Assembly: GCA_009761415.1 (NCBI GenBank)
Contig: QUOL01000003.1
Span: 2,356,001-2,420,000, forward strand
Direction: 5' to 3'
Source of the DNA: Sarcomyxa edulis
Taxonomy: Eukaryota > Basidiomycota > Agaricomycetes > Agaricales > Mycenaceae
DNA: 64,000 bases
Positions 7,457 to 37,333 of the stretch are shown here, piece after piece. Numbering within the stretch: position 1 is the stretch's first letter; each line of letters begins with the position of its first letter. Made by a program: the position numbers and the translations under genes. A model generated the notes under the pieces. The model worked only from the letters and a program-made list of their open reading frames with translations, did no database searches and was not told the origin of the DNA.

Positions 7457-7844
7457 CAGTCAATAGTCACTACATACTGGGTGAGTGATACATCACTCAC
7501 CTTTAGGTAGACACAAGGCGTGATATAATGGAGACTCTAGTCAGAAACATAAATGATATATCACACCACAAGGTGTCCTCCTATAATCCCGTGTAAGGCT
7601 TCCAGTCTCCGCCTCAATTCCTGTCAGCAGGTAGTTGTCATCGATTTTCTGCCTTCCCTTTGAGGACAATTATATTTAGGCGACCCGCCTTGCCCCAATC
7701 AAGACGTCGTGGGCGCCGTTCTCACCGACGGCAAACATGCTTCGTCGCTGTTACCTGTATTGACAAAAATTCACTACTTAAACACGAATTTCTTCGAATT
7801 TTCCCGAATTTTCTTAGAATTTTCTGGCTTTTTTGCTGTATTAA
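7457..7844. repeat. TE1 left terminal/subterminal region
   Basis: This non-coding end of TE1 carries a near-palindrome GAGTGATACATCACTC at 7483-7498, GTGATATAAT near 7520 and TGATATATCA at 7554-7563. These match repeats at the other TE1 end and at both TE2 ends. The rest, up to the transposase stop codon, is AT-rich with a run of AATTTTC-like words near 7790-7830. Confidence 0.6.
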
Positions 7845-10800
7845 TCAATGACTCTCTACACGTGGGGGCTCAGTGAATACATCGCCATCCTCATCAACAC
7901 TCGCCATTGCTATATCTCTGTCACCAATCTTCACCCACTCGTCAACGTCGTTCCAATCATGTATACATGCTACCCGTAAGGCTCTTCGAATTGCTGCCTG
8001 TCGTTTGGCGTAGGCATTGACACCCTCTGCTTGCTGAGCAGAAACAAATGGAAGTCCTTCGCCTTGTGTATCCCACCAGTTCCCTTGCCATTCGAAGAAC
8101 GCTAGAATCCGGCGCATTTCTTCCAAGAGTAGAGTGACCTCCTCTGACCATCGATGTGCCCTCGCTCGGGCTCTGCACCACTCAATTCGGAGCGCTAGAG
8201 TTTCACCTCCGTTAGCCGTACTTGTTCAAAGGTTTTGCTCGACACGTACCATCGTGCATACCGGGATCCTCCGTTCCGTCCCCTGTGATCCCCATCGTGG
8301 TCCATATCCACGATAAGGTGCGTGTCCCCTCTGTATCGTCTGCTAGGCCTGTCGACATCCCCCGAATATCTTCATCTCTCAGCTCCTTCAAGACGTTCTG
8401 CCATGTCCGTGATTTTTCCAAACAGTCACCAAGAATGGATAGGGCGCTTCGAGCATGCTTATACGCTTTCGCCGTTGCGGCGAGTCGATCACTAATCTTT
8501 TGGATGTTGGCGTTGGATCTAGTATTCTGCGCAACCCCTCGAGAGAACCGGTCCTTGTATTTGTAGAGATATGAGCGCAGACGCAAATCTTGGCGGATGG
8601 AGTGGAGAGCGTCGTAGGCTTGTCCTTCCCGCAGTCTCCATTCGTATTCCTGGAAACGGGTATCGCAGTGAACACGGCGGCGAATTTCGGAGGGTAGAAG
8701 GAGCGGGATGTCTTGAGGTGCGTATCCAGGACTGTCGGAGGGCATGCTTTGTGCAGCGTTGTCTCTAAGCGAAGCAACGCCAGGAATGTAGAGAGTCTGG
8801 AGCTCGATCCAGGCATCAATCTTGCGACGAAGCCTATTGGACCGTTCGGCGACTTGTACACGCTGCAAGGACGTAGAGTGTTCCCCAAGGCTCGCAAGGT
8901 CATTTACTAGTCGTCGTCTCGTTTGTTAGTCAGTACGAAGGACGATAGAAAAAAAATACGGCGGACTCTCACTGTTGCTGCTCTAATTCTATCCCACTTG
9001 ATATCATGACCGTAGGATGTACCTGCCGATGTACAACAACATCAGGGTCTGCACCTGCGTTTTCTGCTAGCGCCAACCGAACATCGTGTTGTGTTACAGC
9101 TATCAGAATGATCAGTGAGAGTTTGATAAGGGAAATATGACTGGAAACAAACTTTTGACAATAGCCTTGAAGGGGTTTGGTTGTGTATTGTCTTGCTCCC
9201 AAAGCTCTATTGCGGTGGTCCACTCCTTGACTGTTTTCTCGGGAAGTGCAGACTCGAAGTCCCGGAAGGCAATGACATGCTCGGTGCGCGCAGGGATGGC
9301 AACTCGGAATTTTTTGTACATGACTCGACCTGTCGGAGCAGCATTTGTCAGTACTGGAGATCATACAAATGTGGATCACGAACCAAGAGCAATAGTTTTT
9401 TTCCAATTCCAGTCATTGAAGTGGTCGTCGATCGTGTCGCGTCTCGACCCGGGGCCCATCTCCTTCGTACTTCCAGCAAGACGATTGGCGTCCGCCCAGC
9501 CGCGCTCTGGAGCTTCACCATCTGTCCTTCCCACACCTTTTGTGAGATTGAAAGAGAACGCGATGTTGCAGGCTTCGATATGGGCAGGAAGATGGAATTT
9601 GGGAACGAGGAATTTGACACATTCCATACCGTTAAGAATTTGCCTTTCATGGGGGAAGATCCGCATGCGTTCCCATATGTTCTTGTGCCACTGGCAGGCA
9701 ATGTCATAGGACACCACCAGCCAGCGGAGGGGGGTGTTCTCGAGGCTACTGAAGAACATGTAATCCATGTTTAGATACCTACCAAATGAGCATATCAAAT
9801 GAGCATATCGACGTCCAGATCAGATGAGATGTCCCGATAGAAACATAACATACCGTTCTCCCTTTTGAAGATCGCCAACGCCATTCGGCCTCTTCATGTT
9901 GTGTCGAGCACAGTCAATTGTCCCTATGCCAGAGGCAGCCGTGCCACGGGACTCTCGGTCGGGTTTGTTTACAGCGTCGTGGTCCACACAAGTGCTACGC
10001 TGAAAATTGAAATCGTAAGAAACAGAGATCTGATAGTTAATGGATGACAATACCTCTTGTTTCTGATCCCAATGCTTCGCAAGATGCTCTTTATATTTCT
10101 TCTCTTCAACAAAGAAAGCCCACCCATCGCTTAATCCAGGATCCACCCTGTCGCTGGAAACAACTTTCCGCTGCAAGCGGAAGTTGGCGTCGATGGCGAG
10201 AAACAGGGCGTAGATCCATCTAGAAAGCATTCAACATCAAGATGACGGAACGCGATGCTATCAGTACGCACCTCTGTAAGGGGTGGGCTTCCTGCCATCC
10301 TGGGGGTAAGTTGATTCCATCGTGGGGGCAGGCTGGGCAAAGAAGAGCGCATTGCCCGGGCTTTGTTGCTGCAACGCCCCCGGGGTCGTGTCCACGGCCT
10401 GCTCGCTTGAGCATACGGGAGTTCCTCCAAGCGAGAATCATACGGAGGAACTCAGAATACCGATCCTAGAATGATAGCAATCAATAACAGAGATGTATAA
10501 TCAGACGGGTAGTGTACCTTCACAGGCAATAAACCTAAGTTGTGTGTTTCCCGGACCAAGCTCCTGTAAAATTCGTATGCTGAACTTTTGGATTCGAACG
10601 ACAGAAGCTGGAAGCGCTTCAGAACACGGAAAGTCGCCGCAGTATTGGGATATTGGTCAGTGGCAGGGAACAGTCGCGCTCGGAGTAATTGCGTGGGGTG
10701 ATCTTTACTGTGTTCGCAATCACAGAAATACAAGTCGACTTCAAAGACTCCGTGTGTATCGATGATGACAAAGTCGCGACCCCGCGCTGCCTGAGGACTT

Positions 10801-11615
10801 GGACAAGCTATGCCTGGAGGGTGGCCCAGCTGCACGCGTAAACCGAGTTGCTTGAGTAGTTTCCGTTGGAAAAAGGTGCCATTCCATTCCTATAACTGAC
10901 GTTAGTTTCAAAGCTACATGTTGGCAGAAAACGACTGACTTCGATACGATGCAATGGATTTTGAGCGTGAACTTTGACCATACAGTCTTGACAGAACATG
11001 TCGCAACCAAAACAGTCTTCGCATCTGTACACGCCTTCACGGAGCTCACACTTTCGGCACGGCTTATCCTGAGAATGTCCTCGGCCTTCCAGCCATAGTA
11101 AATTAGCAAGGTAGCGGTCTCGCTCGCTCCGCCACATCAGCAGTGGGTGGTCCTAGAAATGGTATGGCACTGATGAGCACCGGGAACGAAAGATAGGGAA
11201 TGAAGATGCGTACAGATGGACCACGCTTTCTAGCGGGATCAACGACGTGAGATATATCTTCGAGTTCACAGACGTCTGGGTCCCCATCCAAGTTGATGTC
11301 CAAAATATCGTCAATATCTTCAGGAGCAAACCTCGGAGCATCGTCTCTGAGTTGCGATGTGGAGGCACCGGATTTTTGAGGAGAAATCGGAAGAGTAAAA
11401 TATGAGGTCCTCGAAGATAGCTCCCCTGTAGGTTTGACGGAGAACTGGGAATGGCGGTGGTGGTTGTAGCGCGGAGGGTGAGGTAGTACAGGTTGATCAT
11501 CATCACTGGAATCTGAGGGGAGTACTGTGAAGTGGCTGACGTCTGGTTTATGTCGAACACGGCGTCTGCCTCTATGAGGAACTGAACTGCTTCGTTTACT
11601 CGATGTGCTAGCCAT
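7845..11615 (-). CDS. KDZ transposase of TE1 (CxC2 Cys-cluster + KDZ domain)
   Basis: A multi-exon gene starting at ATG 11615 and ending at TGA 7845-7847, with introns matching those of the TE2 copy (33063-36830). Order: basic/acidic N terminus; CxC2-like cysteine cluster around 11100-10960 (CRKC, YRCEDC, FCQDCM, then HAQNPLHRIE); and the transposase core. The core has AIDANFR (candidate first Asp), VVSYDIACQWHKNIW (candidate second Asp), VPKFHLPAHIEACNIAF and EAPERGWAD (candidate catalytic Glu). A long helical tail follows, with YEWRLREGQAYDALHSIRQ. KDZ (Kyakuja-Dileera-Zisupton) enzymes are RNase H-fold DDE transposases. The frame is open across all exons I traced, so the protein may be active. 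It is oriented so that its 3' end faces the left terminus of TE1. Confidence 0.88.
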
Positions 11616-12312
11616 TCAGTGGGGTCAGCGCGAAAGGCATCGCAATTTTCGACGAGTACTCCTTACTTTTTTGCCGATATCACCCGTAGCATTGTAGATA
11701 TTACTTAAGTCACAGGGAGAAACAAATAGCAGGAATTTGACGTGCTTCCGGTTGGAGGTTTGTTGATAGACAACTTCGCGTGGAGTCACATGTGACAAAC
11801 TGAGAACGCGATGTGATAGTATTTGGGAGATCTCGATAGGTAAGGTACCCTATAATTTGCTCTTGACCATTTTATACTGTGGATAGGCGACTACACCCTG
11901 AACATAGTCTATCGAGTCGCGGTGAGTTCAGCGTTCATCTATGTGTTCCAAGGAAATTCACGTTCACTTACTGCGGCACCAATTCAGAGTAGCCCATGTA
12001 CGTTCTACAAGCTCGACATCTTCACGTTCGAGGTCTGTCACGGTCGAATAATGCGTAATTTCATGGAAAAATGGTTTTATGTGATCCCTGGAGCATACGG
12101 TACGTTAGACATATCCAGATAGATATTGCCACAGATATACTTGCATCAAATTTGCCGGGACCCGAAGGGCAGACTTAGAGCCTCGCAAGAGTTGTGCGAA
12201 AGACGATTGTTCGGGTTGAGCCATATTATTGCGGTTCATGGCAACATCAATACTTATATAGGTTTTCGAACTCATTCACACGGATATATTTATACACAGC
12301 GGCTATCAAATT
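11616..12312. promoter_or_regulatory. KDZ upstream region and TET/JBP 3' flank
   Basis: About 0.7 kb between two minus-strand genes of TE1. It must hold the transposase promoter and the 3' end of the TET/JBP gene. Short ORFs here have no supporting features, and I see no TGATATATCA motif. Confidence 0.45.
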
Positions 12313-14158
12313 CTAGTCTACTCCAAGCAAAGACCTTCGATCATCAGCGATCTCATCAAGCTTTGAGAAAAGTCCTAAGGACCATTCCCAACGTGAATCG
12401 CCTTCACCGTCAATCGCCTTCTTCCTATCCTTCCCACCAGGCTGGGCCAGCAAGCTCTTCACCGTCTGAAACCCGCAATCCACCCACCGCATCAGCCCGC
12501 CAGCGCAATACTGTGTAATAGAACAACGTGTTTCGCCGTCACGAAGACCAGTGTTAGCGTGATGGACAATGGCCGAAGGAATGAGGACGGTGGAGCCAGG
12601 AGGGAACTGAACCATTATCTTGAAGGGAAAAAGGACGAGGAGGGCGCTGGTGAGAGGATTGAACTTGCCAAGTGCAGTAATGGCGCAGAATCCCCCAGCT
12701 ACATTGCCGACGTCGATGTGCTTGAGGGAAACAGATCGTGGGCCACAATTGAAAGTGACGGCGGGATAGACGCTGTTGCTGTAGTTGTGAATCAGGTACG
12801 GGGTGTGCTTCCATAATTTCTTCATCTGGTCGGAGATCCAAGACCACCACTTGGGAATGTGATGAAACATGGCACCTGGAGAAAGAATCAGACAATGTAA
12901 AGTTAAAAAGAGACAATCCAACTTACTACTTTGAAATCCGATAATTCGGTCGATGGCATGACTACCGAAGATGATGTCAAGCAAAGCTTCCCGCTCCTTA
13001 CTTTGTACAAGATTGCCCGGCATCTATAGCATAGCGTGAGGGAAGGCATTAGATGACGTAGATATAGAAACACACCTTCTGTCCCCCGCCGAACGAGACT
13101 CCTACTGCCATAGCTGCAAAGTTGCCACGGCGATGCTGGAGATCCTCTTCCTTGAAAGTACCGAAGGAGCAACCCAGGGAAAAGACCTTGAGCAGGATTG
13201 CGAGAGCCTCCTTAGCAATGTCTGTCCAAGCAGGGTCGTCGGGTTGACCGACCAAGACGGCGACGATACGATCCTCGGAGTCAATGATGTACCTAGTGCT
13301 TCTGAAAGATAAGTTAATTACACGGCAGTCTCGAGGTGACAACAAAAGAGGCGTACAGTCCGTCCCATTCAATGACTCGAAAGCCGTCGCGGGAAAGCTC
13401 GTCGGTCGTCCAGATGTGTGTATCCTGATCCTTCTTCTGGTCGCGTTTGCCGGTGTACGACCCCTTCGCGTGAGGAAGATTGGAGACGTTTGCAGTAGTC
13501 CTGATAGACGGAACGGCGGTGAATTGGCTGCCCATTCGGGATTTGGGATGATAATAATGGCCGCGATGAAACAGAAATGCTTGCGAGATCCGTGCGCGGC
13601 GGCGACGGATTTTGGAGCTCTCCTTGGAATGTATCTTCTTCGTCATTGAACGGGTAGTGCGAGGTACAACTGGAGGAGAGGCCGTTGCAACGGGAGCGTG
13701 AACGGCATCGAACGGATGGGCGAAGATCTTCACCGGCGTTGAGAGAGTGCGATCTCGTCTTGTTCGAAAGGTTGGGCGAACGGCGTGGAGCGTGTGGTTG
13801 GAGCGGAGGAGGCGGGGCGGCGCTGAAGCCGAAGAAGTGGATTGGCAAGAAGGGATGGCGTTGCTAAGGCCGTAGGACAAATCTTGGCCTTCTGTATCCC
13901 CAACACCATCATCCATCCTGTCATCCTCCGCGTTGACGGCTTCCCGAAGGAGCTGTGAGACGTCGACAATCGGGGGAAGACGGATGGTGCGTGACGGATT
14001 TGACGCGAGAGGTTGAGCGGGAAGTTGGGGCTGCGGAATCGACACATTGATCCTCTGGCCGCGAAGACGTAGGCCCTTGAGAATTTGAGGTTAGTTAGCT
14101 ACATTGAAAAGCGAATTGAACGGCGACTTACGCTTCTAAGAATTGTATTGCCTGCCAT
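12313..14158 (-). CDS. TET/JBP-like 2-oxoglutarate/Fe(II) dioxygenase (TE1 cargo)
   Basis: Five exons on the minus strand: 14158-14132 (MAGNTILRS), 14075-13357, 13301-13076, 13023-12927 and 12875-12313. The N-terminal ~240 residues are Pro/Arg/Ser-rich. The catalytic part starts with a conserved strand, VGVSFGGGQ, then PGNL. It carries the iron-binding HxD in LKHIDVGN, the distal His in SAIVHHANTGL, and a C-terminal ETRCSITQYCAGGLMRWVD with the Arg expected to bind 2-oxoglutarate. The same motifs occur in the second copy at 48949-50585. Fungal TET/JBP enzymes oxidise 5-methylcytosine and are known to be expanded in basidiomycetes and linked to KDZ transposons (Iyer and colleagues, 2014). Here the gene lies within the element. 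It could regulate the methylation state of the element or of host DNA. That role is inference. Confidence 0.82.
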
Positions 14159-17073
14159 ATCGTTGGTCTTTCTAACCAGCCTAATGCAAGATCGGATCAG
14201 TAAGGCGAGAGGCCGAACGTACATAAAGCTTACCTTTTGAGAATACACTAAGTCCTGCAGGTCAACAGCACGCACACCGCAGTCAGTAACAATGAAGCTG
14301 GAAACACCGAGACTGACTTACTGTACTCCCAGAAGGCCGTGCAGAAAGGGCGAGATTCAAACAAGCTGCAAAGGGTCAACGTTAGCGCTGGTATACAAAA
14401 TAGAACAATAAGGGCAGATAAATGTTTCGAATCGCGCCTGATGGCATGTTTTGCGCGTGCCTTTGGTCAGGCTCTGCACATACAACCAAGGCCGAGACGG
14501 GTGGAAAAACATGGATATGACGAGGGAAAGATGAGATACTTACAACGTGTATGGTCGGTGGACCGGGGAGGACTACAGCAAACTATGAAACAACGATCGT
14601 TAGCACAGGTTGAACGAAGAAAGGCCCTCAACTTCCAGCGTATTGTACGCGTGCCTTTGGTGAGGCTCTGCGTACGGCTGAAAATGGAGGGAAGGAGAGC
14701 AAGCGAGGAACACGACTCACCGGTAGATGGGGGTTAGAAACAGGAAGAACGGGAGAGGGCAAATAGATAAGGTCGCGGTGGGTCGATGGTTGCGAAATGA
14801 ATTTGTATTGTGTAGGCACACCGGCTCTATCCCATCAGACTTGCATCAGAAACGTATTGCGTGCACACTGTGCCGCTTGTGAATAGATTGGAATAACACC
14901 TACCTTAGATCTGAAAGCGACGCACCTGCCGGTTGAACCACACCCCAAGAACGAAACCAGACAGCACTGAGAGACACTCACGATATCTTGCAGCTGGGGT
15001 ATGGAGGTGAGACTCAGTAAATTCAGGGCTGGGCGTATATGCCATCGCAATGAGACCGCCGTGGGGTAGTCCCTGAAACGAATTTGTATAACCACTTCTC
15101 TGGCATCACTATCACAATCAAAGGCGAACCATGTGCTCGATATAATAGCTGTATACTTATTGCTCACCTTGTCCCCAGAGCAGTCGACGTTCCAGTCGAC
15201 ATTCATCCTCAAATCAAGTGAGGCCTCGTCCATAGCATGAAAGGGAGCTGAGAGGTGCATGTAAGATAAGGGTGGTGGTACACACAAGCTTGAAGATACG
15301 GACCCGTATCTAGGTACGCGAGAGAGTGAAATTGTGAAGTTTAGAAGACTTACCGAGCTTTTCACCGTGACGATCTACTCTCCGAGTCGTAGTTCGCATG
15401 ACCGAGTTTGAGTCCACGTGTCGCAAGTACAACTCCCCTTCGTCTTGGCATACTTATAGCGGTCCGGTACCAACGAACGTCATAGAGGCCCGTGCGTAAT
15501 AAGCTGGAGGAGGAGGAGGAGAGGCCAGGTTGAACTGACTTGCGTCTCGAGCTCTTCGAAGGACTTGATGTTGGGAAATCAGGAACGGTGATATTGGCAT
15601 TGTTTGGCAACAGCCTCTCGGATGCTTTCGGTTCCTACAAGCGCCCACTCGTTATCGTTTTGCACAATGTAGTAGAAGCCTGCTCTTCAAAGTTCGGGTA
15701 CAATATCGATGATTTCTTCCTAACCTGGAGCTCGGCAATAGCACCCACATCTGCATAGTGAGTTTGCATCTTCCTCTAGAAGATGTCGCAACTCACACGA
15801 TTCAAGTAGCAGACGCACCATGTTGATGTTTGCGATATGTGTGATTTGGGAAGCTCTCGCAAGCATATATTCTTGATTTACTGCATGCTTCACTCTACTG
15901 AGTGCTTTGAAATAGAAACCCGCACTCCGAAACGTGACTTTTGAATCACTGCCAGTGGCTTCATAAGTCTCTTTCTGGTTTCTCGCCCGATCCAGGCTCT
16001 CTACCCTCAGCGACCGCACTCCCGTAAGGCCAAAATCCTCAGGGTTTTTAGGAGCACACACTCTATGTACGTTGGAACATTGCATACCCTTCATCAGACT
16101 TCGCAATCCTTCACATTTACGCTAGCCATACAAAACTACTTTAGGGTACTCTGGAGAAGCTGGTGAACATCAGACAGCTATCCCTGGCGTCAAGACAACA
16201 AATGATATTACCTTCACCCATATTTGCGAAGTCCAAGGTTCCGGATTGCTGAGTGGCCTCATTCCTTCGACATCAAGCTGTAACCCTAACCCTAGGTCGA
16301 ACAGTCCAATATGTTTGCGATATTGTGGTACTACGGGAAGTCTCTGCAGATTTTTCGACTCTCGGATTGATTTAATCAACAAGTCCATAGACTACATTGA
16401 TATTCCAGAAGCTGGAAAGAGCTTGAGCTGTGGTCAGAGTGAACGGCGTACCATCGAGTCCAAAGTTGATCGAGGTTCAAGTCATGCACATTGGCATAAC
16501 GTCGACCTGTTGAGTCCGAACTTATATTCTACATTCTACAGGCTCAAGTCGAGAAAGTGAGTCTCACACATCTTTTCGAGTGCTTTTCCATAACCAGGTA
16601 TATTTATGTTATCAAAGTTGCCGTCGAGTCCCACTAGATTCTTTGAGTTCTTCAGGATCAAAGGGTCGATGTTTGCGATCCACAGGCAATTATCCGAAAT
16701 GTGTTCTCTTCCACGCTCAAGTAGGTGGTTGTACATTCTCTTTAATTACCAACTATCGTATTCTTACACTCATTCAAAGATATGTACCGGTTATATGGCA
16801 CCTCGACGTATCTGCACTTTGAGCCAATCATTATGTTTGCGATATCCTATCTCATTCTCCCTGACTTGTCCGCACTGCAGGTATACACGTACCAAAACCA
16901 AAGTGGGTTGGAATACTTGCATAGATTCGCCAGAGGTAGAGAGCAACAAGTGAGTGACAAAGTTACTATCGTCAAGTTGAACTTTCTGGTTTTCGGCAAC
17001 CTAGAGCAGTATTCCGGTGCACCTGCCACTTGTGTCCAGCGCGTCTTGTCAAGTCTCCATCACCATCATCATC
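14159..17073. other. Gene-poor 2.9-kb stretch inside TE1 with possible decayed repeats
   Basis: No gene could be assembled with confidence. From 14160 to 14820 the sequence contains two copies of a ~24-bp word (GCGTGCCTTTGGTSAGGCTC) at about 14454 and 14648, perhaps the 5' leader of the TET/JBP gene. From 15700 to 16900 the word TGTTTGCGAT recurs at about 15827, 16312, 16670 and 16834. On the minus strand this encodes IAN-like starts of short leucine-rich stretches (such as LWIANIDPLILKNSKNLVGL), which could be remnants of an LRR or F-box-like gene. A short telomere-like run (TAACCCTAACCCTA) occurs near 16281. Open frames of 60-180 codons are present but not connected by clear splice sites. 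Confidence 0.35.
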
Positions 17074-18029
17074 ATGCGCTCTCTCGCTCAGAAGAAGGAA
17101 GCACATCGAATTGCTTGCGCTGCCTATAATGAAAGGTACTGAGCAAAGATATACCTTCACTGGATAAATACTCATTTCACCACAGGAATCGCTCTTACTT
17201 GAATGAAAAGTCACGTCTTCGAATGGCAAGGTAAGACAATCTACTACCACTATCAAATCGATCTTGAGGCAAGAGTCTTTCAGATACCGAAAGAAGGAAA
17301 AGCTTGCTGCTTCTAGCGATAATGCTAGGACTGTCTTGCGCAGCAAGGCTAAAGCAACCAAAGCACCGAAACGTATCAAAACTCAGGTTACGGCGACAAA
17401 AGCGCACGATGAGCGTAATTCATTGGGCTCCAAGGCTCAGGATGATATGCCGTCGACCCCAGTGATGGTTCATCGTATTCTACAGCCAAGTATCGACGCC
17501 ACCTCCCCGTCTGAATCTGAATCGCTCCCAGATTCTGACGGTTGGTCAACTCCAACCCCGACCTCAAGTCCAAGCCTTCGTGGCATGCGTTCTCTATCCC
17601 CCGAGCCTTGGACTAGGTATCAAACCAACTTCGCTCATCAGGCTGGCTCTGCTCAACAGACTGCCCCTGCTCGTCAGGCTGTCCTCTCTGATGCTGAAGC
17701 GTATGCTCTCGTTGCACTCATAGGTTTTACTTATATCCTGACAGTTGTGGATTAGACAAGCAGATGCTATCAAAGCTTTCGATGAGCTCTTTGAAGATGA
17801 CGATACACCCAGTTTAAGGTAGAATTCCCCGTTCCCTCCTTCGAAACTCATTCCTGACCTGCAATATAGCATCACTGAGGGCCAAGAATTCTCGTCTTCA
17901 ACATATTGGCAACGGATGTTGCAGCACGATCAGCAAGACAAACGCTCGCATGACGATGCCCTCCATCTGCGATGGCAGCGCCGCTGGGAGGAGAAGATTA
18001 GAGGCAACCGTGCATTTGGTCATCGGTAG
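17074..18029 (+). CDS. Small basic-motif protein (TE1 accessory gene)
   Basis: Start ATG 17074 (MRSLAQKKEAHRIAC). Introns 17136-17185 and 17231-17283 join the signature YNERNRSYLNEKSRLRMARY, followed by RKKEK. Two further introns near 17723-17764 and 17820-17869 lead to a C terminus rich in Trp and Arg (LRWQRRWEEK), ending at TAG 18027-18029. The N-terminal Arg/Lys-rich helix resembles the basic half of a bZIP-like region, so DNA or RNA binding is plausible. The same YN-x2-NR-x2-L-x-EKSR-x-RMA signature is encoded in TE2 at 29146-29795 at the same relative position, so this is a conserved accessory gene, not chance coding. The middle is Ser/Pro-rich. It is tail-to-tail with the viroplasmin-domain gene, 148 bp apart. 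Function unknown. Confidence 0.7.
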
Positions 18030-18177
18030 AGTAGCTTCTGATTATAGTCACACCGCTATCTTGGGAGAATGCACATCTTTTTCACTTCTTTCAGCCGAGG
18101 GCGATCGTACATAGTCACAACAGAAGCAGTGAAGTTCCAGAACAAAAAAAACTATCCAAAAAGAAATTCTATCAAGA

Positions 18178-23182: not shown

Positions 23183-23191
23183 TAGTCGATT
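23183..23191. repeat. Right target-site duplication of TE1 (TAGTCGATT)
   Basis: Second copy of the 9-bp repeat at 7448-7456. Three bases (CAA) lie between the GACTG end and the repeat, so the precise terminus is uncertain by that much. Confidence 0.75.
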
Positions 23192-24850: not shown

Positions 24851-25102
24851 TAGCTTCGACCTAAAAAAACATATCCGGATTGCTAGAATTTATTATCCAT
24901 GAATTAGAAAGTCCCAGTCCTCGATCGTACACTGTTACAAGGGAACTTCAAGCTTAGAACATATAGTTACAACAAGATATTTTATTGGTACAGTAATATA
25001 CGGTAATAGCACGTTAGTGCAGCAAGAAAACATAGCTAATGTACGACGACACGATTATTAACATACAAAATGACATCCAGAAGGGCGGCGACGCAGCTAG
25101 CA

Positions 25103-27786: not shown

Positions 27787-28139
27787 TCACTGCCGACGGA
27801 GATTTCGGAGATTTCAAAATAAAAATATCCGGAGTCCACCTCAATCCAGCTGCCAAGATACAGGTCCATCCCCAAGAATTCGTCTCAACCCCAAGTTTTT
27901 GACGCACGTTCCTGTTTACTAGCCAATCAAATGGTCCGGATGACCGGGGACTGGACCTAACCGGTCCTTCGAGTAAGTTCCAGGTGGTTTCGAACCAATC
28001 AGAGCGATGCTTCGATTGATTTAGCTTTGATGGAGGGTTTTTAAAGCATCCGAAATTTGCAAACCCCCCATCTTTCCTACCCCATCTAGCTAGTTCCCCA
28101 CCATCTAATATCTCACCGACCCCGCATCTTGACTCGATC
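27787..28139. promoter_or_regulatory. Bidirectional promoter of TE2 accessory genes
   Basis: 353 bp between divergent WF-box and viroplasmin-domain genes. It contains two CCAATCA boxes (about 27921 and 27999) and a GTTTTTAAAGC TATA-like stretch near 28039. Unlike the equivalent TE1 region it holds no GTGATAYATCAC palindrome. Confidence 0.5.
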
Positions 28140-28753
28140 ATGGCTAACATCGAAACTGAAGAGTTGACGTTGGCCGCTATTTCGGCTCAACTTGCGAGGT
28201 TGCAAATTGCTCGTACGTTGACTCTCTATTGATCTCTGGCTCACAACACTGAAAAGCCTCCAGTTGACGTTGCGACTGCTTCCGCTGCTGCTCGCGCCCC
28301 TCAAGCCCCTAGGGTCCAAAGTGAGGTCATGGCGCCTCCTCCATTTGCTGCCCCCGCATCGTGCCAATGCGGCGCTTCTGCTCCTCCCTATACCGCGTCG
28401 TCGTCTCAGGCGGAGGTCCCCATCCCCCGTACGTCTCCTTTTTCTTCTCTAATATCTATATATCTATATGTCTTGCTCAATTCTGCATATACAGAAGACG
28501 TGCCGGCGTCTCAGAGGTGGTATCTCGTCACTGTCGGGACCAGACCTGGCGTTTATCAAGGCTGGTACGTGTTTTTACCTCTGTCCCTTTCCATCGTAGT
28601 TTCTCAACTTGCGTTGTTTCTAGGCAGGTCGCTGCTCGCTACACCAGGGGAGTCAAAAACTGGTGTGCTACCAAGCAGCCTAGCGAGGCCGTAGCGCGCA
28701 TACGTTTTGCGGAAGAGTTAGCAAATGGAGGAGTGCAACGCGTCATCGCGTAG
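28140..28753 (+). CDS. Viroplasmin/RNase H N-terminal-like domain protein (TE2 accessory gene)
   Basis: Four exons: 28140-28212, 28264-28428, 28495-28564 and 28624-28753. N terminus MANIETEELTLAAISAQLAR, alike to the Leu/Ala helix at the start of the TE1 homologue. A short Ala/Pro linker follows, then RWYLVTVGTRPGVYQGW and VAARYTRGVKNWCATK, ending in FAEELANGGVQRVIA. This retains the W-Y-x-V, R-P-G-V-Y and RGVKNW positions of the viroplasmin-like fold and lacks the long acidic middle of the TE1 protein. About 145 residues in all, so the domain makes up nearly half the protein. No catalytic RNase H follows. RNA-DNA hybrid binding is known for this fold. Its job in a DNA transposon is unknown. 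Confidence 0.72.
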
Positions 28754-29145
28754 GTCTCCCCCCACTTCGGACTGGCCATCGTACCACTATTCCCAGTTGT
28801 GCAGTACCTACGTAGTTCGTCCTAGCATCACGCTCACCTTCTTGATCGATGGCCGCCCTTGCTCTATATATATTACCTACGTACCCGCCGTTTACTTACA
28901 ACATGCTCGTCACCTGTGTCCTTGTCGCTGTACTCGGCGAATACAAAAAAATATTGTTGCCTGAATACTTTCTATAAATCTGAAGTCTTCAACTACGAAC
29001 GAAGTACCGTATGTACAATTAGAGTGAAATTTGAATATATTGATAATGCTAACCAGTCGTCGGTCAACACATCAGACTCGAAGGATAGAGAGACTGTAGA
29101 GCTACTAGATAATGACGGGGAAAGTAATGTTGACCAATTGAAGCA

Positions 29146-29795
29146 CTATGCATCTTTGATTGGTTCGAATATGTCGTCCGGGTATACATAGTCCTCGTCA
29201 CAGAGGCATTGGTTAGGGAACTCGCATGCGCACCCAGGACAAATGAAGGGAAACTCTGGCATTGTCTCGACTCGAATCCGTCGTGCGTCACGTTCGGTAT
29301 CAAGGGCCTTCCTGAAGTGTTGACGTTACAGAGGATGAGAGAATGCAACTGACTACAACTGACTACATACTGTTTATTGTTGAGCCTGCGTTGTGTCGCC
29401 TTCTGTCTCAAAAGCTCCTTGTTGCTGAAGGAAAAACTGGATATGAGATGGTGATCAGAGAAGGCATTGACAAGTAACACACCGTTGATAGTACTCCGCT
29501 ACAGATTCCCTATGTCGAGCCCGAGCTTCGTCGGTAGGTACGACAATTGGTGTTGTGCCATTGGCTTTGCGCTCAGCCCTTATTCTGCAGAGGGTCATCG
29601 AGTAAGCGAAATGATGACAGAGAATTGAGACGACGAATGTTGAGCTTACTTTGCCATCCGTGCTCTGGATTTTTCACGTAGGAGGTTTCTATTGCTGAGA
29701 ACGCTGAAGGGTCGATGGACTGCAATGAGCTCGGCGGGCGGGATGACTTGCCTGGCATTGTAGTCAGACGACCGACGGCGGCCTGAGCGAGGCAT
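29146..29795 (-). CDS. Small basic-motif protein (TE2 accessory gene)
   Basis: I choose ATG 29795 (MPRSGRRRSSDYNA) rather than the downstream in-frame-looking ATG 29758. A GC-AG intron with the classical AG|GCAAGT donor then joins to SNRNLLREKSRARMAK. This reproduces the TE1 signature (YN-x2-NR-x2-L-x-EKSR-x-RMA). A second copy of the motif follows: ARHRESVAEYYQR, then NKELLRQKATQRR. The C terminus has a Cys cluster, FICPGCACEFPNQCLCDEDY, perhaps metal binding, and TAG at 29146-29148. It is tail-to-tail with the viroplasmin-domain gene, as in TE1. The last exon borders are less certain. Confidence 0.6.
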
Positions 29796-30268
29796 AGTAG
29801 AGTAGGATGGGAGAAGTGTGAGAGGAGTGAGAGGAGTGAGTGAGAGGAGTGAGTGAGTGAGAGAGCGACGATCGAGATCGAAATGAACCTAACCCAAATG
29901 CGGCATCTGAATTGGTCCCTCCTCTAAATCGTCGAGCTCGTACAGCGTTCAGCAGCTGTGTATCACCGTGTGCAACACAACGAACAGGTAGATACATCAT
30001 GATAGTATATGTATCCCAACGGCTGGACAGATCCGACTCCTGGCGCAATTGCAAGCAAGCCTTCTTGCTCGATGGCTGTCTGGGCATTGTGAGCCTACTT
30101 GCACCCCACCCACCGCTCCACACACAACACTTCAAGCCCTCTTGATATTTGGGCCTTCTTTGGATAGGTATGTTCTATTGCTCTACAGCTGACCACCCCT
30201 CAATACTACTTCAGTCGTGTGCTATAGTAAGGAACTTTGCTGTCCTGGCGAGGCAAGCTACAAAACTT
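29796..30268. other. Upstream region with GAGTGA simple repeat
   Basis: A GAGTGAGAGGAGTGAG-type simple repeat runs at about 29815-29870, directly upstream of the basic-motif gene. The rest carries only short ORFs without family features. Confidence 0.5.
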
Positions 30269-30938
30269 GCACCCTTCTCCCCGACTCAAATATCACAATT
30301 CAGGTTCCCCAAACGTCCTGAAGTTTTTCTCGTATGCAACTAGTCTGTGCTCCAAACGGCTCTTCACCCTAATCCATCTCATTATTATGTTATAGCATTT
30401 GTTTGATTCGTACTGACGGTTCGCGTCTCATTATCAAGCACCCTCCCCCCGACCTACACAGCCCAATTCAGGTTCCCCAAACGTTTTGAGGTTTCTCTCA
30501 TATGCAACTAGTCTGTGCCTCTAACGGCGTTTGGCCCCAACCTATCTCATTACTTTGTTATAGCATATGTTTGATTCGTACTGACGGTTCGCGTCTCATT
30601 ATCAGGCACCCTCCCCCCGACCTACACAGCCCAATTCAGGTTCCCCAAACGTTTTGAAGTTGCTCTTATATGCAACTAGTCTGTGCCTTTAACGGCGTTT
30701 GGCCCCAACCTATCTCATTATTTTGTTATAGCATATGTTTGATTCGTACTGACGGTTCGCGTCTCATTATCAGGCACCCTTCTCCCGACATACAGAGCAC
30801 AATTCAGGTTTTCCAAATGTCTTAATAATACTTCTATATGTAAGTAGATCGTGCTCCGAACGGCTCTCTACCTCAGTCCATCTCGATATCATGTTATAAC
30901 ATATGTCAGATTCGTACTGATGGTTCGCGTGTCACAGC
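30269..30938. repeat. Four tandem copies of a ~168-bp unit
   Basis: Copies begin GCACCCTTCTCCCCGA or GCACCCTCCCCCCGAC at 30269, 30439, 30606 and 30774. Each includes AATTCAGGTTCCCCAAACG, ATGCAACTAGTCTGTGC and GATTCGTACTGACGGTTCGC. Copies two and three are most alike; the fourth is the most diverged. No coding potential is conserved between copies. Confidence 0.85.
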
Positions 30939-31924
30939 CTTTTTTGACCTCAACCGAACCCACACGATGACTATCAAGTCCCCTGAAGGCTATCATATTG
31001 TTATGAGATGTAAGTAATAGTATTTTGTCAGTGCAGTTTCCCTCCATTTGGTGCTGACCTAACACTATGATATTTGTATGTTTTTTGTACAGCATTTTGA
31101 AACATTTTCTGCGCTGTTTGCGCTGTTTGCGCGCTTTGATGTCTTAATATCCCTTTCCATGATCAATATCATTATAGCCAAGCATATGGGCACCAGGTCA
31201 ACGATCCCGAGAGATCTCCCAAGACCTGCAGGGCGCGTGAAGGGAGGCTCGTCAAAACCCTCAAAATTCTGATGGTTTGCGACATCCACATTGGGACACT
31301 TTTTTTCTCACCACGCGCGCCACGGAAGGCGGATCTAATACGTGTGCATAACCCTCTGCCCAGCAACGTTTCAACCTTCCTCCACCTCTTGACTGACCCT
31401 TCCCTCCAGAGCTTCACTGGCTATGCCGTCTCTACACTCTTGTTTCGGACACTTTTGCAGTTATCGACACTCAATACTCGTCACTCCACTGCGACAAACT
31501 AGATATACAACATGGCATATAAACAAGGTAGCGAACTGTCAGTACGTCACCTCCAAGGCAGCTTACAATTTTCCTAGATCGCCCGCTCCTCAGAAGCTTC
31601 AATATTCAATCGAAGAAGTTGTTTCGCAGCCTTATAAGATCCTAGGTTTGTCATTTTGTCTTCCCCTCTCCTGTTCCTCAACCACCACCTTACAGTACGT
31701 TTTTTTTTGCTCTTTTTTGCTCTCTTCCACTCTTTTTTGCGTTGTTTGCTTCATCTAACACTCATTTCTTATCCTAGAGCAGTCTACTTGACAACTTCCA
31801 CGAGATTCTTCCAACCTGGTATCCAACGTCATAAAAATCCATCAAGTTCGTCTTTCCTCGCCTCGTTAAACAAGCAACTGACAGTTCTCTTGACAGCAAC
31901 ATTATCACCAAATTCGTATCCACT
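30939..31924. other. Non-coding stretch inside TE2
   Basis: No supported gene. The region between the tandem array and the acidic ORF contains short ORFs in both directions, T-rich runs near 31640-31740 and several candidate splice sites. It could hold 5' non-coding exons of the gene at 31925. Confidence 0.4.
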
Positions 31925-32626
31925 ATGGCCGGCAATTCTCGTTCGCGTGCCACATATCGTCCCCCCCGCTCTTTCCGTTGTCCCCTTCATCGTAATCATC
32001 CTTCGCCCCCCCTTTCTCCAACTCCACCTCCTTCGCCCACTTGGGCTCCTGGCCCTCCTCTTCGCCCAACTCGCGTTGTTTTTGGTATGAAGAAAGGGTC
32101 CCCCGCTGTCATGTTGGCATCAGTTCCCATCAATACCGCCGGTCTTGTCACGGATGCAGACTTTCGCGCCAACGGCTGGGACGTATATAGGTTACGGGAC
32201 CGCAGCGATGGTGACCGTGTCTACGCCGAGATCAATGCCAGAAACCCCGAGCGTGCTATCTGGAGGGCAGAACAGTTTAAGGATACCGATGGTCACTTCG
32301 AGGACATGTTCGATATGGAGGCGATGTTCGATGTTGACGACAAGGACGATACAGATGTCGAGGAGGAACCTGTCGAGGAGAAGGCCGTCGAGGAGAAGGC
32401 CGTCGAGGAGAAGGATATCGACCAGAAAGCTGCCGACATAGAATCCCAGCCCGTCGTGCCTGCCTCTCCTGTTGCACAGTCTTCGGCAGATCGGACAGAT
32501 GGCGAGGCCCATGAGCGTCGGTATAGTATGATGGGTAGAGGGCGTGTTGTTGTACCGAGAGAGGAAAAGTACCGCCATGGTGACGCTGCGCAGCACTTGG
32601 GTCATCTTCGCGGTACGTTCAAGTGA
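31925..32626 (+). CDS. Acidic protein of unknown function (TE2 variable slot)
   Basis: Single open frame of 233 codons from ATG 31925. The N-terminal 50 residues are Arg/Pro-rich. A central folded-looking segment reads GLVTDADFRANGWDVYRL and DGDRVYAEINARNPERAIW. The C-terminal half is highly acidic, with three tandem VEEKA-like repeats. A weak TATA-like context and an earlier exon cannot be excluded. I do not recognise a family. It lies just upstream of the transposase and on the same strand, the position held by the TET/JBP gene in TE1. Confidence 0.55.
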   Translation: MAGNSRSRATYRPPRSFRCPLHRNHPSPPLSPTPPPSPTWAPGPPLRPTRVVFGMKKGSPAVMLASVPINTAGLVTDADFRANGWDVYRLRDRSDGDRVYAEINARNPERAIWRAEQFKDTDGHFEDMFDMEAMFDVDDKDDTDVEEEPVEEKAVEEKAVEEKDIDQKAADIESQPVVPASPVAQSSADRTDGEAHERRYSMMGRGRVVVPREEKYRHGDAAQHLGHLRGTFK

Positions 32627-33062
32627 AACGGCCCTCCCCCATCTTGTTGCCTACTCGACCCTTTTTTTGTTTTCTTGGATCCCTCCCCGAGTGACTTTCA
32701 GATTCTTCGAACTTTCTTGGCGCCTTTGTATGTATATACATCTCTTGGACTTTGTTTCCTCTTCAGATATTTTGTTTCTTTGTTTATGAAGCTTCTTTTC
32801 GTGCATATCCATACCTCCCGCATACCCTGTAACTTACTGTACACTCTGTCAGTCTAATGTCTTATAGATACCATTCTACTTCTTGACTTGTTATGCATGT
32901 ACAAATATATCTTGGACTCTGTAATTTGTGTGAGGCTTGTTCAATCACGAGTCAGGACGCGACTCGATCTCGTGATGTGAAGAATCTAAAGTGTCCTTGG
33001 AATTCAACAGGTCCAAATCCTGCAGCCACTCAGTCAACATACGTCTTGACGACAAAGCCCAC
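32627..33062. promoter_or_regulatory. Upstream region of the TE2 transposase
   Basis: About 0.4 kb, T-rich, between the acidic ORF and the transposase ATG. It should contain the transposase promoter. I see no clear TATA box or TGATATATCA motif. Confidence 0.4.
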
Positions 33063-36000
33063 ATGAAAAGAAAGGGCGTAAAACGCGTTAAAACCTCTGC
33101 TACACAATTCACCTTCCATTCTGTCCCTCCAGAAAACCCTACTTCTGCCCCGACAGATCGTACACATCGTCATCTCGCGTTCACTGGTCGCGATGATGGC
33201 CGAGTCAACACATCGATGAACTTTTTCCAGGCTCCTGCATCACCACAAAAGACTGCTCCTGTGCCTCGATGGGCCGATACCCTCTATGAAGAACACTTTA
33301 CGGAGAGCGATGATGTAGTTTCTGGGTCCAGTGAACCGTTGGATACAGGATATGTGGATCCAGATTATGTGACTTTCCTCAACGAAATCACGCTGGAACC
33401 GTTACCAACTAAACGTCGACGTCCCAAGTCCGTAAGTCTCATTTATATATTTGCTGTGTTACTTATCTTGGACTGACCACAAATAACAAAGGACTTCCCA
33501 CTGCACATATGGGCAAAACAGCGAGATGAATTTTTGGTGGAACTTAATCGTTTGGAAGGTCGAGGAGACCACATTGGATTACCCTGTGGGCGTTGCAACG
33601 ACCCTGTACCAGAGTATCGTTGTCGAGACTGTGATGGATGCGAGATGTTTTGTCAGGATTGCACGGTTGCTTCCCACAGCAACAATTTCCTGCATCGGGT
33701 CCAGGTATGTAACATCTTATTCACGAGTCTTATAATTCTTCGAAGACTGATCTGATCTCTATACAGCACTGGAATGGGACTTTTTTTGACAACGTTACTC
33801 TCAAGAGTCTTGGGCTCCGGAAATTGCTCAATCACCGAGATGGCGAGATCTGCCTCAATTTCGAAGAACAGAACGACTTCGTTGTCGTTGGAAACCACGA
33901 TATACAAGAGGTCTGCCTCCGCTTTTGTGCTTGCGAGAGAGCCGTCCACCCCGTGAAACAATTGCTCCGTCATCGTCTCTGGCCCGCCACCACTTCCTAT
34001 CCCAAAACAGCGGCAACATTCAGTTGTCTCCAACGCTTCCAACTAGAGTCCTTCGAAGGGAAGCTCACAGTATTTGAGTATTATCACAGCTTGCTTCGTG
34101 GGACAGATAACACAGGCGTCAGTCCACCGAGGGTAAGTCGCTTCTCTCTCGGCTGGTTCTTCCCCAGGTACTGATATCTCTCTGTTCCAGGATCGTTACG
34201 AGGCACTTCTCCGTATGGTTCTAGAATGGCGTCATAGCAGAATGCTCAAACGAGGTGGCCGCGGACACCATCCTGACGGTGTTATGGGTACAAAAGAAGG
34301 CCAACTTGCGGTCTTATGTCCAGCATGTCCACAGCCTGACATTAATCTGCCACCAGGATGGGAAGAAGCACCGGCTGACAAGCAGTACGTTCTTATGAAA
34401 TGATCTTGAGACGTTGCGTAGCTCACTTCATTGATCACAGATGGCTTTACGGTCTGTTCATAGCCATTGACGCCAACTTTAGGATGAAGCGCAAGCTCGT
34501 TTCGAGTGATGTAGCGGATCCAGGGTTGAACAAGGGCTGGGCATACATAGTTGACGAGGTCCCGTACAAGGCCTACTTGAGAAACTACAAAGGCAAACCC
34601 GAGGTATTTAGTCGATTGGTTCTCAAGCTGTCATGATGTGACTGATCATGAAACTGAAGACGAGTACTTGCACGGCTCATAAAGCTGTGAATGATGCCGA
34701 AACACGTCAATCTGATGGACTGGCAGCCACTGGACTGGGGACAGTGGACTGTGCACGACACGATTTCAAACGACCCGTTGCTGTTGGAGACTTACAGAAG
34801 GGCGAACGGTGAGTAGCGCCAGTTCATCATCCTACAGCACAGATGACTGACATGTCGTGAAAGGTATGCAAATATGGACTATCTCTTTTTTTCTGGCCTT
34901 CGCGATAGCAAAATCAAGACTCTCGTTGTCTCGTACGATATAGCATGCCAATGGCATAAGAATTTGTGGACTCGAATGATGGAGTTGCCCCACACATACC
35001 GATTCATTGATGGCCAGCGAGTCATCGTCTTTGTCGTCCCCAAGTTTCATCTACCCGCGCATGTATTGGCGTGCCAGATCGCGTTCTCGTTCAATTATAC
35101 TAAGAATGTCGGTCGGACAGAGGGTGAGGCTCCCGAGCGAGGATGGGGAAATATCAATGGGGCGGCAGGTATGACTCAGGAAATGGGACCAGGAGCACGT
35201 AGAGATACACTGGATGACTTCTTGGGCGATTGGAACTGGAAGAAGGTGGCGAACATGGGTGAGTCCACCTGACTTCCTGTATAAGATATATCGTACTGAT
35301 CGTTCTCGGTCGAGCAGCTGTTTCTCTTCGCCGCAAGCTCAAAGTAGCGGTCCCTGAGTGTGGTGATCATGTAACTACCCACGAAGCTCTCGAGGATGTG
35401 TTAGTACCCCGTGATGTACAGGAGTGGAAGACGGCGATAGAGGCTTGGGAGGCTGATAACACCAATCCCAATCCATTCGAAGTCAAATTTGACGGTACGT
35501 CTCGTATAATTTGATATGGATTCATCGGTAGTCTAATCCGAGTTCTTACAGCGCTTACCACCGAGGCAGTTCGCCTGGCCATGAACGCAGCGGAGGCAAT
35601 AGACGTACAAAAAGGGAACATTGTTATGATTCACGACGCAGTCTCTCCCTGTGTTCTGATGATGACTGGTATGGATTTGGAAGAGCAGCAGTAAGTCTCA
35701 CTGTGTCTGCCTATAATGTTGAACAAGCATCTAATAGATTACAGGCGTCGACTCGCAGCTGATAATGCTGCACTAGGTCTTCACGCGACGGATCGGCAAC
35801 ACTCCAACATCATCCAACGTGATACAGCACTACGCACGCAGATCACAAGCTGGTACGATATCCAGCAATTGTACTGCCCAGCAGCCCACGCAGCCCGTTC
35901 CCGCGAGCTCGCTGGGACACCATCTGGCTCTCCTCTCGGCCCTGCATCTAGCATGAAGATGTGGTTCCCTTCGATGCTCGCACCGCAGGCTGATTGCGAC

Positions 36001-36830
36001 ATCAAGCTACAGGAACACGAATGGAGTCTGCGATATGCCCAAGCAAACGACGCGCTCCAGGTTATCCGTACCAACCTTCAACTTCGTGCAGCGCTTTACC
36101 ACTATAAGGATCGGTTTGACCGCGGGCAGAGTGCAATGACTCGTTCTATGCACCTCTTAGACAAGGTCAAAGACAGAGTAGCTGCAGCGTGCCTGCGGTA
36201 TCGGGTCGCTCGCCATGCACTTTGTGTCCTAGCTCCGCGACTTCTTAAGGGAGTAAGATGGGAGGTACAGTTGAAGCCATTGGAGCCTGCCGATGTGCGG
36301 GGACTTTCGGTGGGTGACATGGGTGATTCCGAAGGTCGTCGTAAGCTGTCCTGGATATGGACGGCTCACGGTGTAGCGGCAGAAGCTGACGACGATGAGC
36401 GGCTTCATGATTGTATGTATGATCTTTTCTATCCGTTTTTTCTAAACTAATGTCGCATGCATGTATAGCCCTACGTATCGAATGGTGCAAGAGTCGCGCA
36501 CGCGCCATGCGATGGACAGAGGAAGTCGAGCTTTTGCAGGAGGAGATGAGGCGTGTACTACAGTTTCTTTTGTGGCAGGCGGAATGGTGGGAAAAGCAAG
36601 CGTCGCGCATACCAGGATCGAGTAGAGAGCATACGGAAGGGGTTGTCGCCTACGCTATGCGTCAGGCTAGCATTCGCCGCCTGATGCGCACGCATTGTAT
36701 CGAGTTGTGGGGTGGGACAAATGACCTGCTAACACATTGGAAACCGTTTAACAGCAACCACGACATTGGTACGGGACGGGTTCCCTCTACTACTACGACA
36801 TCCTCGTCTTTGACAGACGTATTTGGATAG
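33063..36830 (+). CDS. KDZ transposase of TE2 (CxC2 Cys-cluster + KDZ domain)
   Basis: Eleven exons with good splice sites: 33063-33431, 33492-33704, 33767-34132, 34191-34384, 34441-34603, 34660-34808, 34863-35258, 35318-35494, 35552-35690, 35745-36412 and 36469-36830. The CxC2-type cluster spans about 33580-33700 (PCGRCND, YRCRDCDGC, MFCQDC, then SHSNNFLHRV). Transposase core: AIDANFRMKRKLV, VVSYDIACQWHKNLW, VPKFHLPAHVLACQIAF and EAPERGWGNING, with candidate D, D and E residues as in the TE1 copy. The helical tail has HEWSLRYAQANDALQVIR. I found no stop or frameshift. It ends about 500 bp from the right terminus of TE2, as the TE1 copy does at its own end. It is clearly homologous to the TE1 enzyme throughout but well diverged, so the two elements are not recent copies of each other. 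Confidence 0.9.
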
Positions 36831-37333
36831 CACATTCCTATGTGTTGGCGCGGGTAGATGGATGGGGACATTGGCGCGTGGCGCTTTTCTTGGGCTTTCG
36901 TACAGTTACTCTTAGTTACATTGATTCTGAATGTTTTTTTCTGTATGTCTAATTCGCCGTGACAAAAAGCGGCGGGGGGGCGCACCCACATGGCATTACA
37001 AGCCTAAGGAGGCGCACGTTGTCCTCTTTTGGCTTCTCTGAGGTGCAAAGGCCGAACGTACTTGCAAATATAGACTGAGTCCTGCTCAAATTGGTATATT
37101 TGGGGTTTTCACCCGATTTTCCGTGTATTTCCTGTCAAATTGAGACGATATGTGCTCCGGATATGGTTGAGGTGCTAAAATACTGGTATCTCACCGGATT
37201 AGGCAGGTGTCAAGAAGCAGATGCATTGGAGGGAGGTGTTGTATCACTCAAGGCTCTAGATGAGTGGATGTTATGTATCACTCCTTGCTTGTAATATATA
37301 ACTGGTGTTGTATCACCCTGCCAAGGTCTGGTG
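36831..37333. repeat. TE2 right terminal/subterminal region
   Basis: Non-coding end. A GC-rich patch (GGCGGGGGGGCGCACCC) lies near 36970. From 37238 onward three GT-rich GTATCAC motifs precede the terminus CCAAGGTCTGGTG at 37321-37333. AATCTGT (37334-37340) is the right target duplication. Confidence 0.65.

What the first reader, a model, noticed from the sequence alone, without database searches (positions are those of the whole stretch)
7457..37333. Two giant KDZ transposons share one conserved accessory-gene module
TE1 (15.7 kb) and TE2 (13.0 kb) have related termini. With TE2 reversed they have the same order and polarity: KDZ transposase, variable gene, basic-motif protein, viroplasmin-domain protein, WF-box protein. 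The last two always diverge from each other, and the basic-motif gene is always tail-to-tail with the viroplasmin-domain gene. The proteins are clearly homologous in motifs and intron placement but well diverged, so the module has been kept by selection and not by recent copying. A KDZ link to TET/JBP genes is described in the literature; I am not aware of a description of this four-gene module with defined element ends.
Basis: partly seen in the sequence, partly recalled or inferred. Interest (0 to 1): 0.92.

Follow-up and report, generated by a model that had tools for sequence, protein, structure and literature searches.

The report
Mushroom jumping genes carrying partner genes
Two large fungal jumping genes each carry, besides the enzyme that moves them, the same back-to-back pair of helper genes; the pair recurs beside most of the related elements that were read in this genome and has descended together with the moving enzyme, so it looks like part of the machine rather than random baggage.

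Summary
The core observation holds. TE1 (7468-23179, 15,712 bp) and TE2 (24331-37333, 13,003 bp) are single insertions with CA..TG ends and perfect 7-bp target duplications, the published Kyakuja (KDZ) signature. TE1 sits in a kinase-gene intron, TE2 inside a Ty3/gypsy element, so transposase and partner genes arrived together. A viroplasmin (RNase H1 N-terminal) gene and a 'WF-box' gene, divergently transcribed upstream of the transposase, were found at 14 of 16 KDZ loci read (one of the 14 weakly; 8 of the 10 loci picked before I knew where the pair lies); 32 of 48 KDZ places were not read. Of 15 WF-box places in the genome, 13 lie within 16 kb of a KDZ hit, all upstream and on the opposite strand. 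Transposase and WF-box trees share 6 of 7 splits. The WF-box protein has an HMG-box-like fold (modest match). TE1's 'variable gene' is a TET/JBP dioxygenase. TE1 and TE2 basic-motif proteins share only a short motif. The conserved unit is transposase + viroplasmin + WF/HMG, with optional genes. Six elements carry boxes at fixed offsets (19, ~54, ~88 bp) at both ends. TET+ KDZ elements are known; I did not find the pair or the boxes in print. Function is inferred.

The parts
7468..23179 (-). TE1, complete Kyakuja-type KDZ element, 15,712 bp (transposase on - strand)
   Evidence: CA..TG ends, 7-bp TSD; joined flanks give a GT..AG intron of a kinase gene
7461..7467 (.). TE1 target-site duplication, left copy CAATAGT
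23180..23186 (.). TE1 target-site duplication, right copy CAATAGT
7845..12239 (-). TE1 transposase gene, 1166-aa model, KDZ + CxC2 (first exons uncertain)
12313..13916 (-). TE1 TET/JBP dioxygenase gene, 478-aa model (the 'variable gene')
   Evidence: 67 homologues; weak Tet_JBP matches in 3 of 6 relatives scanned; relative P0009 folds as CcTet/NgTET/TET2
17074..17822 (+). TE1 basic-motif protein gene (model)
17872..19552 (-). TE1 viroplasmin (RNase H1 N-terminal) domain gene; domain exons 18355-18475 and 18196-18304
20020..22600 (+). TE1 WF-box/HMG-like protein gene (first three to four exons reliable, low-complexity tail uncertain)
24331..37333 (+). TE2, complete Kyakuja-type KDZ element, 13,003 bp (transposase on + strand)
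   Evidence: CA..TG ends, 7-bp TSD; lies between the left LTR and the coding part of a Ty3/gypsy element
24324..24330 (.). TE2 target-site duplication, left copy AATCTGT
37334..37340 (.). TE2 target-site duplication, right copy AATCTGT
25103..27786 (-). TE2 WF-box/HMG-like protein gene (low-complexity middle uncertain)
28140..28753 (+). TE2 viroplasmin-domain gene, 145-aa model
29146..30000 (-). TE2 basic-motif protein gene (model)
31925..32626 (+). TE2 variable gene (no Pfam family over its cut-off; homologue in relative J)
32897..36830 (+). TE2 transposase gene, 1073-aa model
7486..7560 (.). TE1 left terminal box array: TGATAYA boxes at offsets 19, 54, 87
23086..23161 (.). TE1 right terminal box array, offsets 19, 55, 88
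24349..24425 (.). TE2 terminal box array at its left end in the window, offsets 19, 55, 89
37240..37315 (.). TE2 terminal box array at its right end in the window, offsets 19, 54, 88
23947..42433 (+). Ty3/gypsy LTR retrotransposon interrupted by TE2 (LTRs 23947-24192 and 42188-42433, 99.6% identical over 246 bp)

Best explanation
Shown: TE1 and TE2 are two divergent KDZ DNA transposons with the end signature of Kyakuja, each one insertion. The conserved unit is a transposase plus a divergently transcribed pair: a viroplasmin (RNase H1 N-terminal) protein and a WF-box protein with an HMG-box-like fold. Optional genes vary by subfamily: a TET/JBP dioxygenase (TE1), a different gene (TE2), a basic-motif protein. 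Inferred: the transposase binds the phased palindromic boxes at both ends; the WF/HMG protein binds and bends DNA to bring ends 13-16 kb apart together, or otherwise helps assemble the transposase-DNA complex; the TET enzyme oxidises methylcytosine on the element and keeps it expressed; the viroplasmin protein binds RNA:DNA hybrid or double-stranded RNA and counters RNA-guided silencing or clears hybrids. The pair therefore serves the element itself and is kept by selection on transposition and expression.
Confidence: 0.6

Rival explanations
1. The partner genes are passive cargo: fungal genes captured once by an ancestral KDZ element and carried along without helping it move.
For: Some components are optional (TET, basic-motif, variable gene) and viroplasmin-domain genes exist elsewhere (6 of 13 places); viroplasmin evolves fastest (dN/dS 0.21-0.44); a viroplasmin gene is reported inside a large Pleurotus Helitron copy (PMC4289320, passages).
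Against: Order and divergent orientation kept across transposases 47% identical or less, co-descent of WF-box and transposase, dN/dS below 0.5 in all 9 unsaturated pairs.
Confidence: 0.2
2. The pair acts mainly against host silencing (methylation and RNA-guided), not in the cut-and-paste reaction; the HMG-like protein is a transcription or chromatin factor for the element.
For: 18 of 26 TET-like places lie 2.3-3.7 kb upstream of a KDZ hit, 13 of them in TE1's orientation; published proposal that transposon TETs counter methylation (PMC12730594, discussion part 1); shared divergent promoter region, 205-467 bp between the starts in the models of TE1, TE2, G, B and D1.
Against: The pair is present where no TET was recognised (TE2, J, A-E), and in the compact 11-kb elements I recognised only transposase plus the pair, as expected of core machinery.
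Confidence: 0.3
3. The module is itself a separate mobile unit nested in KDZ elements.
For: Nested insertions occur here (the copy at F is interrupted, its pair about 33.7 kb further off than in G).
Against: One TSD pair per element, insertion sites accounted for by the outer ends, WF-box tree matches the transposase tree. I did not search systematically for a second set of ends inside.
Confidence: 0.03

Closest known systems
TET+ Kyakuja (KDZ) transposons of Agaricomycetes, Kojima 2025 (PMC12730594)
   Same: KDZ transposase, 5'-CA..TG-3' ends, 7-bp TSDs, TET/JBP gene inside
   Different: In what I saw of the main text (introduction, sections 3.1 and 3.2, part 1 of the discussion, figure legends, and a search of the whole for six terms) no viroplasmin or WF/HMG partner of Kyakuja and no phased terminal boxes are described; TE2 and several relatives here have no recognised TET. 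Its supplements were not readable
KDZ elements with an HMG-domain partner, Iyer et al. 2014 (PNAS; not held; recalled from its abstract)
   Same: HMG-like partner protein of KDZ elements
   Different: Cannot be compared in detail; the WF-box protein may well be the same family
KDZ elements of Marasmius oreades (PMC8290104, passages)
   Same: KDZ elements are a large part of its DNA transposons; terminal motif said to be characterised
   Different: The motif is in a supplementary figure that I could not read, so the boxes seen here may be in it
KDZ1-3 of Cryptococcus (PMC12810828, passages)
   Same: 9-11 kb KDZ elements, 4-8 bp TSDs
   Different: 139-241 bp TIRs, CxC1 rather than CxC2, no partner genes mentioned in the passages seen
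TET+ IS3EU elements with a conserved alpha-kinase gene (PMC12730594)
   Same: Conserved gene order and opposite orientation of a partner gene in a fungal DNA transposon
   Different: Other superfamily, other partner

Membership tests
Kyakuja (KDZ superfamily) | KDZ transposase domain | tested here: met
   TE1 E=5.1e-67; TE2 genome hit E=2.5e-38
Kyakuja (KDZ superfamily) | CxC2 cysteine cluster | tested here: met
   TE1 E=4.4e-40; TE2 not scanned
Kyakuja (KDZ superfamily) | 7-bp TSD and 5'-CA..TG-3' ends | tested here: met
   TE1 and TE2; also G, I, J, K
Kyakuja (KDZ superfamily) | no terminal inverted repeats | tested here: inconclusive
   No long TIRs in TE1 and TE2, but inverted arrays of three short boxes at fixed offsets
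Kyakuja (KDZ superfamily) | position in the KDZ transposase tree | not tested
   no named Kyakuja, Dileera or Zisupton reference was fetched
Zisupton / Dileera | 8-bp TSD | tested here: not met
   7 bp at all 11 loci where ends could be set, of 16 read
TET/JBP dioxygenase (TE1 gene) | HxD...H iron-binding residues | tested here: met
   invariant in TE1, G, I alignment except the aspartate (I reads HVY); H and D nearly invariant and second H invariant in 49 homologues
TET/JBP dioxygenase (TE1 gene) | TET fold | tested here: met
   model of relative P0009 (48% identical over 60% of the TE1 protein): first 24 Foldseek rows all TET/CMD1 enzymes
TET/JBP dioxygenase (TE1 gene) | Pfam Tet_JBP over its cut-off | tested here: not met
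   none for TE1; 3 of 6 relatives scanned match at E=2e-4 to 0.021, under the cut-off
RNase H1 N-terminal (viroplasmin) domain | PF01693 match | tested here: met
   TE1 4.8e-13, G 1.9e-10; TE2 20.3 bits against a cut-off of 21; M three stretches, hand-spliced D1 9.5e-9 and N 7.1e-9
RNase H1 N-terminal (viroplasmin) domain | lysine pair of the hybrid-binding surface (role recalled) | tested here: inconclusive
   present in TE1, G, I, K; absent in TE2, J, A, B, D1, M, N
HMG box (WF-box protein, second half) | three-helix HMG fold | tested here: inconclusive

The most novel reading that the evidence does not exclude
Kyakuja elements are three-protein transposition systems: the transposase works with an obligate, co-inherited WF/HMG architectural protein and a viroplasmin hybrid-binding protein on a phased, three-box palindromic array at each end; TET and other genes are later add-ons. 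Nothing found here excludes that.
Probability: 0.3. Interest if true: 0.75.

Novelty: new variant of a known kind. Interest (0 to 1): 0.52.

Why it matters
It turns a loosely noted 'accessory gene' habit of fungal KDZ elements into a defined unit with exact ends, partner genes, a co-descent test and candidate binding sites, so that requirements for movement and for escape from methylation can be tested gene by gene. It also gives a likely role to families of mushroom 'hypothetical proteins' (WF-box, viroplasmin-domain).

Tried and rejected
Profile searches of the WF-box and TET families against solved-structure sequences found no relative; the folds gave the answer. A full-length WF-box protein search returned nothing at E<=0.001, probably because of its low-complexity middle; the N-terminal profile found 6 proteins, two named from Hygrophoropsis aurantiaca. 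Co-localisation in other species could not be tested: no fungal collection with gene context is on hand; one Mycena rosella protein (P0066) joins a TET-like part to CxC2, a hint only. Seven-base TSD matches alone prove little at G, I, J, K: about 2-4 pairs are expected by chance in the ranges scanned and 2-6 were seen; one pair per locus also has the terminal motif. Ends were not set at A, F, H, M and N. An early reading of reverse-strand boxes at 155 and 223 (and my note) was a coordinate artefact of the palindrome, put right. dN/dS: 10 of 19 pairs saturated, among them TE2-J and TE1-K, and two more have dS above 2; TE1-TE2 was not computed. Gene models come from my own exon-chaining script; first transposase exons, viroplasmin linkers and WF-box tails are uncertain.
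Full report
OBSERVATION. The window is part of a 35.6-Mb, 40-contig genome. The two elements have exact ends. TE1 runs from 7468 to 23179, starts CA, ends TG, and is flanked by CAATAGT on both sides; TE2 runs from 24331 to 37333, CA..TG, flanked by AATCTGT. Joined with one TSD copy, the TE1 flanks give a short GT..AG intron between two exons of a protein-kinase gene (Pkinase E=5.1e-20 for a hand-joined piece). TE2 lies in a Ty3/gypsy element with 246-bp LTRs 99.6% identical, between the left LTR and the first methionine of its long frame (frame identified). An open frame happens to run across the TE2 site there, but that part is upstream of the first methionine, so the LTR pair and the TSD are the evidence. 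TE2 is therefore younger than a young retrotransposon (inference). Transposase and partner genes came in as one unit in both cases.

HOW GENERAL. KDZ gives 93 exon matches that I grouped by eye into 48 places (list; the last is under the family cut-off). I read 16 of the 48. Ten (A, B, C, D1, D2, E, F, G, H, I) were taken as consecutive ranks among the intron-split KDZ hits before I knew where WF-box genes lie: 8 of 10 have the divergent pair. The two misses: H has none in the 20 kb read; F is a 99.8% copy of G as far as position 9113, where the likeness stops, with its pair about 43.5 kb from the transposase. J, K and M were taken because WF-box hits pointed there, N because it had TET but no WF-box hit; all four have the pair, N weakly: profile E=1.4e-4 beside an HMG-like stretch that I recognised by eye. 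With TE1 and TE2 that is 14 of 16; counting near-identical copies once (B/C, D1/D2/E, F/G), 11 of 12. In all 14 the viroplasmin gene is on the transposase strand and the WF-box gene on the other. Viroplasmin hits in A-E are weak singly. Genome-wide, three WF-box queries gave 15 places at E<=0.01; 13 are within 16 kb of a KDZ hit, all 13 upstream and opposite; the others are F's pair and a weak hit 24.7 kb away. 3.8% of the genome is that close to KDZ. TET-like: 26 places, 18 of them 2.3-3.7 kb upstream of a KDZ hit, 13 on the same strand and 5 opposite; one lies 15 kb downstream of the TE2 transposase, in the window; 7 are farther or have no KDZ hit on their contig. Viroplasmin: 13 places within 16 kb (one of them F's pair, nearest to another KDZ; one, C21:92131, on the strand opposite to its KDZ, locus not read), 6 far; an intron in the domain makes that search insensitive.

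SUBFAMILIES. TE1, G, I, K carry TET and the basic-motif gene; TE2 and J carry a basic-motif gene and another variable gene; A, B, C, D1, D2, E carry a second WF-box type and no recognised TET or basic-motif gene; M and N carry TET (opposite strand in M). In the compact elements B-E, about 11.1-11.8 kb with long inverted terminal repeats, I recognised transposase, viroplasmin and WF-box only. I read this as the core, with the rest added.

CO-DESCENT AND SELECTION. Trees of transposase and WF-box (first 330 residues) for 10 loci share 6 of 7 splits, the exception being the place of M; distance correlation 0.95, 0 of 5000 permutations as high. Intron phases 0,2,2 in 7 of 8 and a 129-nt third exon in 7 of 8, M being the exception; B, D1 and E were left out of that count because their models skip an intron. 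NG86 dN/dS is below 0.5 in all 9 unsaturated pairs of 19: transposase 0.051-0.095 (3), TET 0.17 (1), WF-box 0.12-0.20 (2), viroplasmin 0.21-0.44 (3); two of the 9 have dS above 2.

TERMINI. Kojima describes Kyakuja as without TIRs. In the six CA..TG elements here each end has palindromic boxes (TGATAYATCA-like; counted as TGATAYA with at most one mismatch) at offset 19 in 12 of 12 ends, 53-55 in 10 of 12 and 86-90 in 12 of 12, about 34 bp apart. The most interior stretches sharing one offset, in 300 draws of 12, was 3. The motif was read off these ends, so the first offset is partly by construction; the six elements form two related groups. TE1 and TE2 differ over most of the rest of these ends. 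The boxes are the obvious candidates for binding by transposase or partner; this is inference.

MECHANISM. Shown: anatomy, linkage, co-descent, constraint, a TET fold and a modest HMG-like fold in relatives. Inferred: WF/HMG protein as DNA-bending assembly factor; TET as demethylator, as already proposed for such genes; viroplasmin protein as RNA:DNA-hybrid or dsRNA binder against silencing. Against the last: TE2, J, A, B, D1, M and N lack the lysine pair.

PRIOR WORK. Library searches: 'KDZ transposon fungal' (15 papers), 'Kyakuja-Dileera-Zisupton', 'viroplasmin Agaricomycetes transpos' (14, none), 'KDZ HMG transposon TET', 'Kyakuja', 'viroplasmin basidiomycete' (93, 1), 'KDZ accessory genes transposon' (94, 3), 'divergent, HMG domain, Zisupton' (103, none). 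I opened six papers, all in part: sections of PMC12730594 and passages of PMC12810828, PMC12477816, PMC7641404, PMC8290104 and PMC4289320. None of what I saw describes the viroplasmin/WF-box pair or phased boxes in KDZ elements. Supplements were not readable; the Marasmius oreades paper says that it characterised KDZ terminal motifs in one. PMC7641404 reports that intact Pleurotus KDZ elements are preceded by a CxC2 region, as here. Iyer et al. 2014 was not held; my memory of its abstract is that some KDZ elements encode extra proteins including a divergent HMG domain, so the HMG part is likely not new. PMC4289320 reports a viroplasmin gene inside a large Pleurotus Helitron copy beside a putative transposase.

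VERDICT. A real, well-bounded and, as far as read, general feature of this genome's intron-split KDZ elements; a new variant of a known kind, interesting because it makes a testable three-protein hypothesis. On rechecking I lowered the observation verdict to 'partly confirmed' because the basic-motif homology is not borne out; the other scores stand.

Noticed in passing
window 50088-50564 (+): A third TET-like exon (42% identical to the TE1 protein), outside TE1 and TE2; the nearest KDZ hit is that of TE2, 15 kb away.
   Followed up: no
G000 C21:188062-189631 (-): TET-like gene, exons 68-82% identical to that of TE1, with no KDZ hit within 56 kb: perhaps a close relative of TE1 that lost its transposase, or a solo gene.
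   Followed up: no
L011 and L013 (C40:730720, C40:771212): Two copies 99.86% identical over 10.7 kb whose unequal terminal repeats are swapped, as if the inside had flipped by recombination between the inverted ends; both have perfect 7-bp TSDs.
   Followed up: partly
L021/L022 (C4:569962-589961): A 99.8% copy of element G whose likeness stops at 9113; its viroplasmin/WF-box pair lies about 33.7 kb farther off than in G, with another KDZ hit in between.
   Followed up: partly
L033 (C10:404501): Viroplasmin protein with three matched stretches of the domain (PF01693 E=1.5e-22) and a TET gene on the strand opposite to the transposase.
   Followed up: partly
window 54905-56209 and 57681-58974: A direct repeat, 68% identical over 1.3 kb, right of the retrotransposon, perhaps paralogous genes (coordinates converted).
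   Followed up: no
window 44106-44780 (-): GNAT acetyltransferase frame (Acetyltransf_3 E=4.9e-17).
   Followed up: no
L017/L018 region, locus I (L027/L028, C40:61487-81486): The TET-like protein model of locus I reads HVY where the others read HxD, so this copy may be inactive or the model wrong.
   Followed up: no
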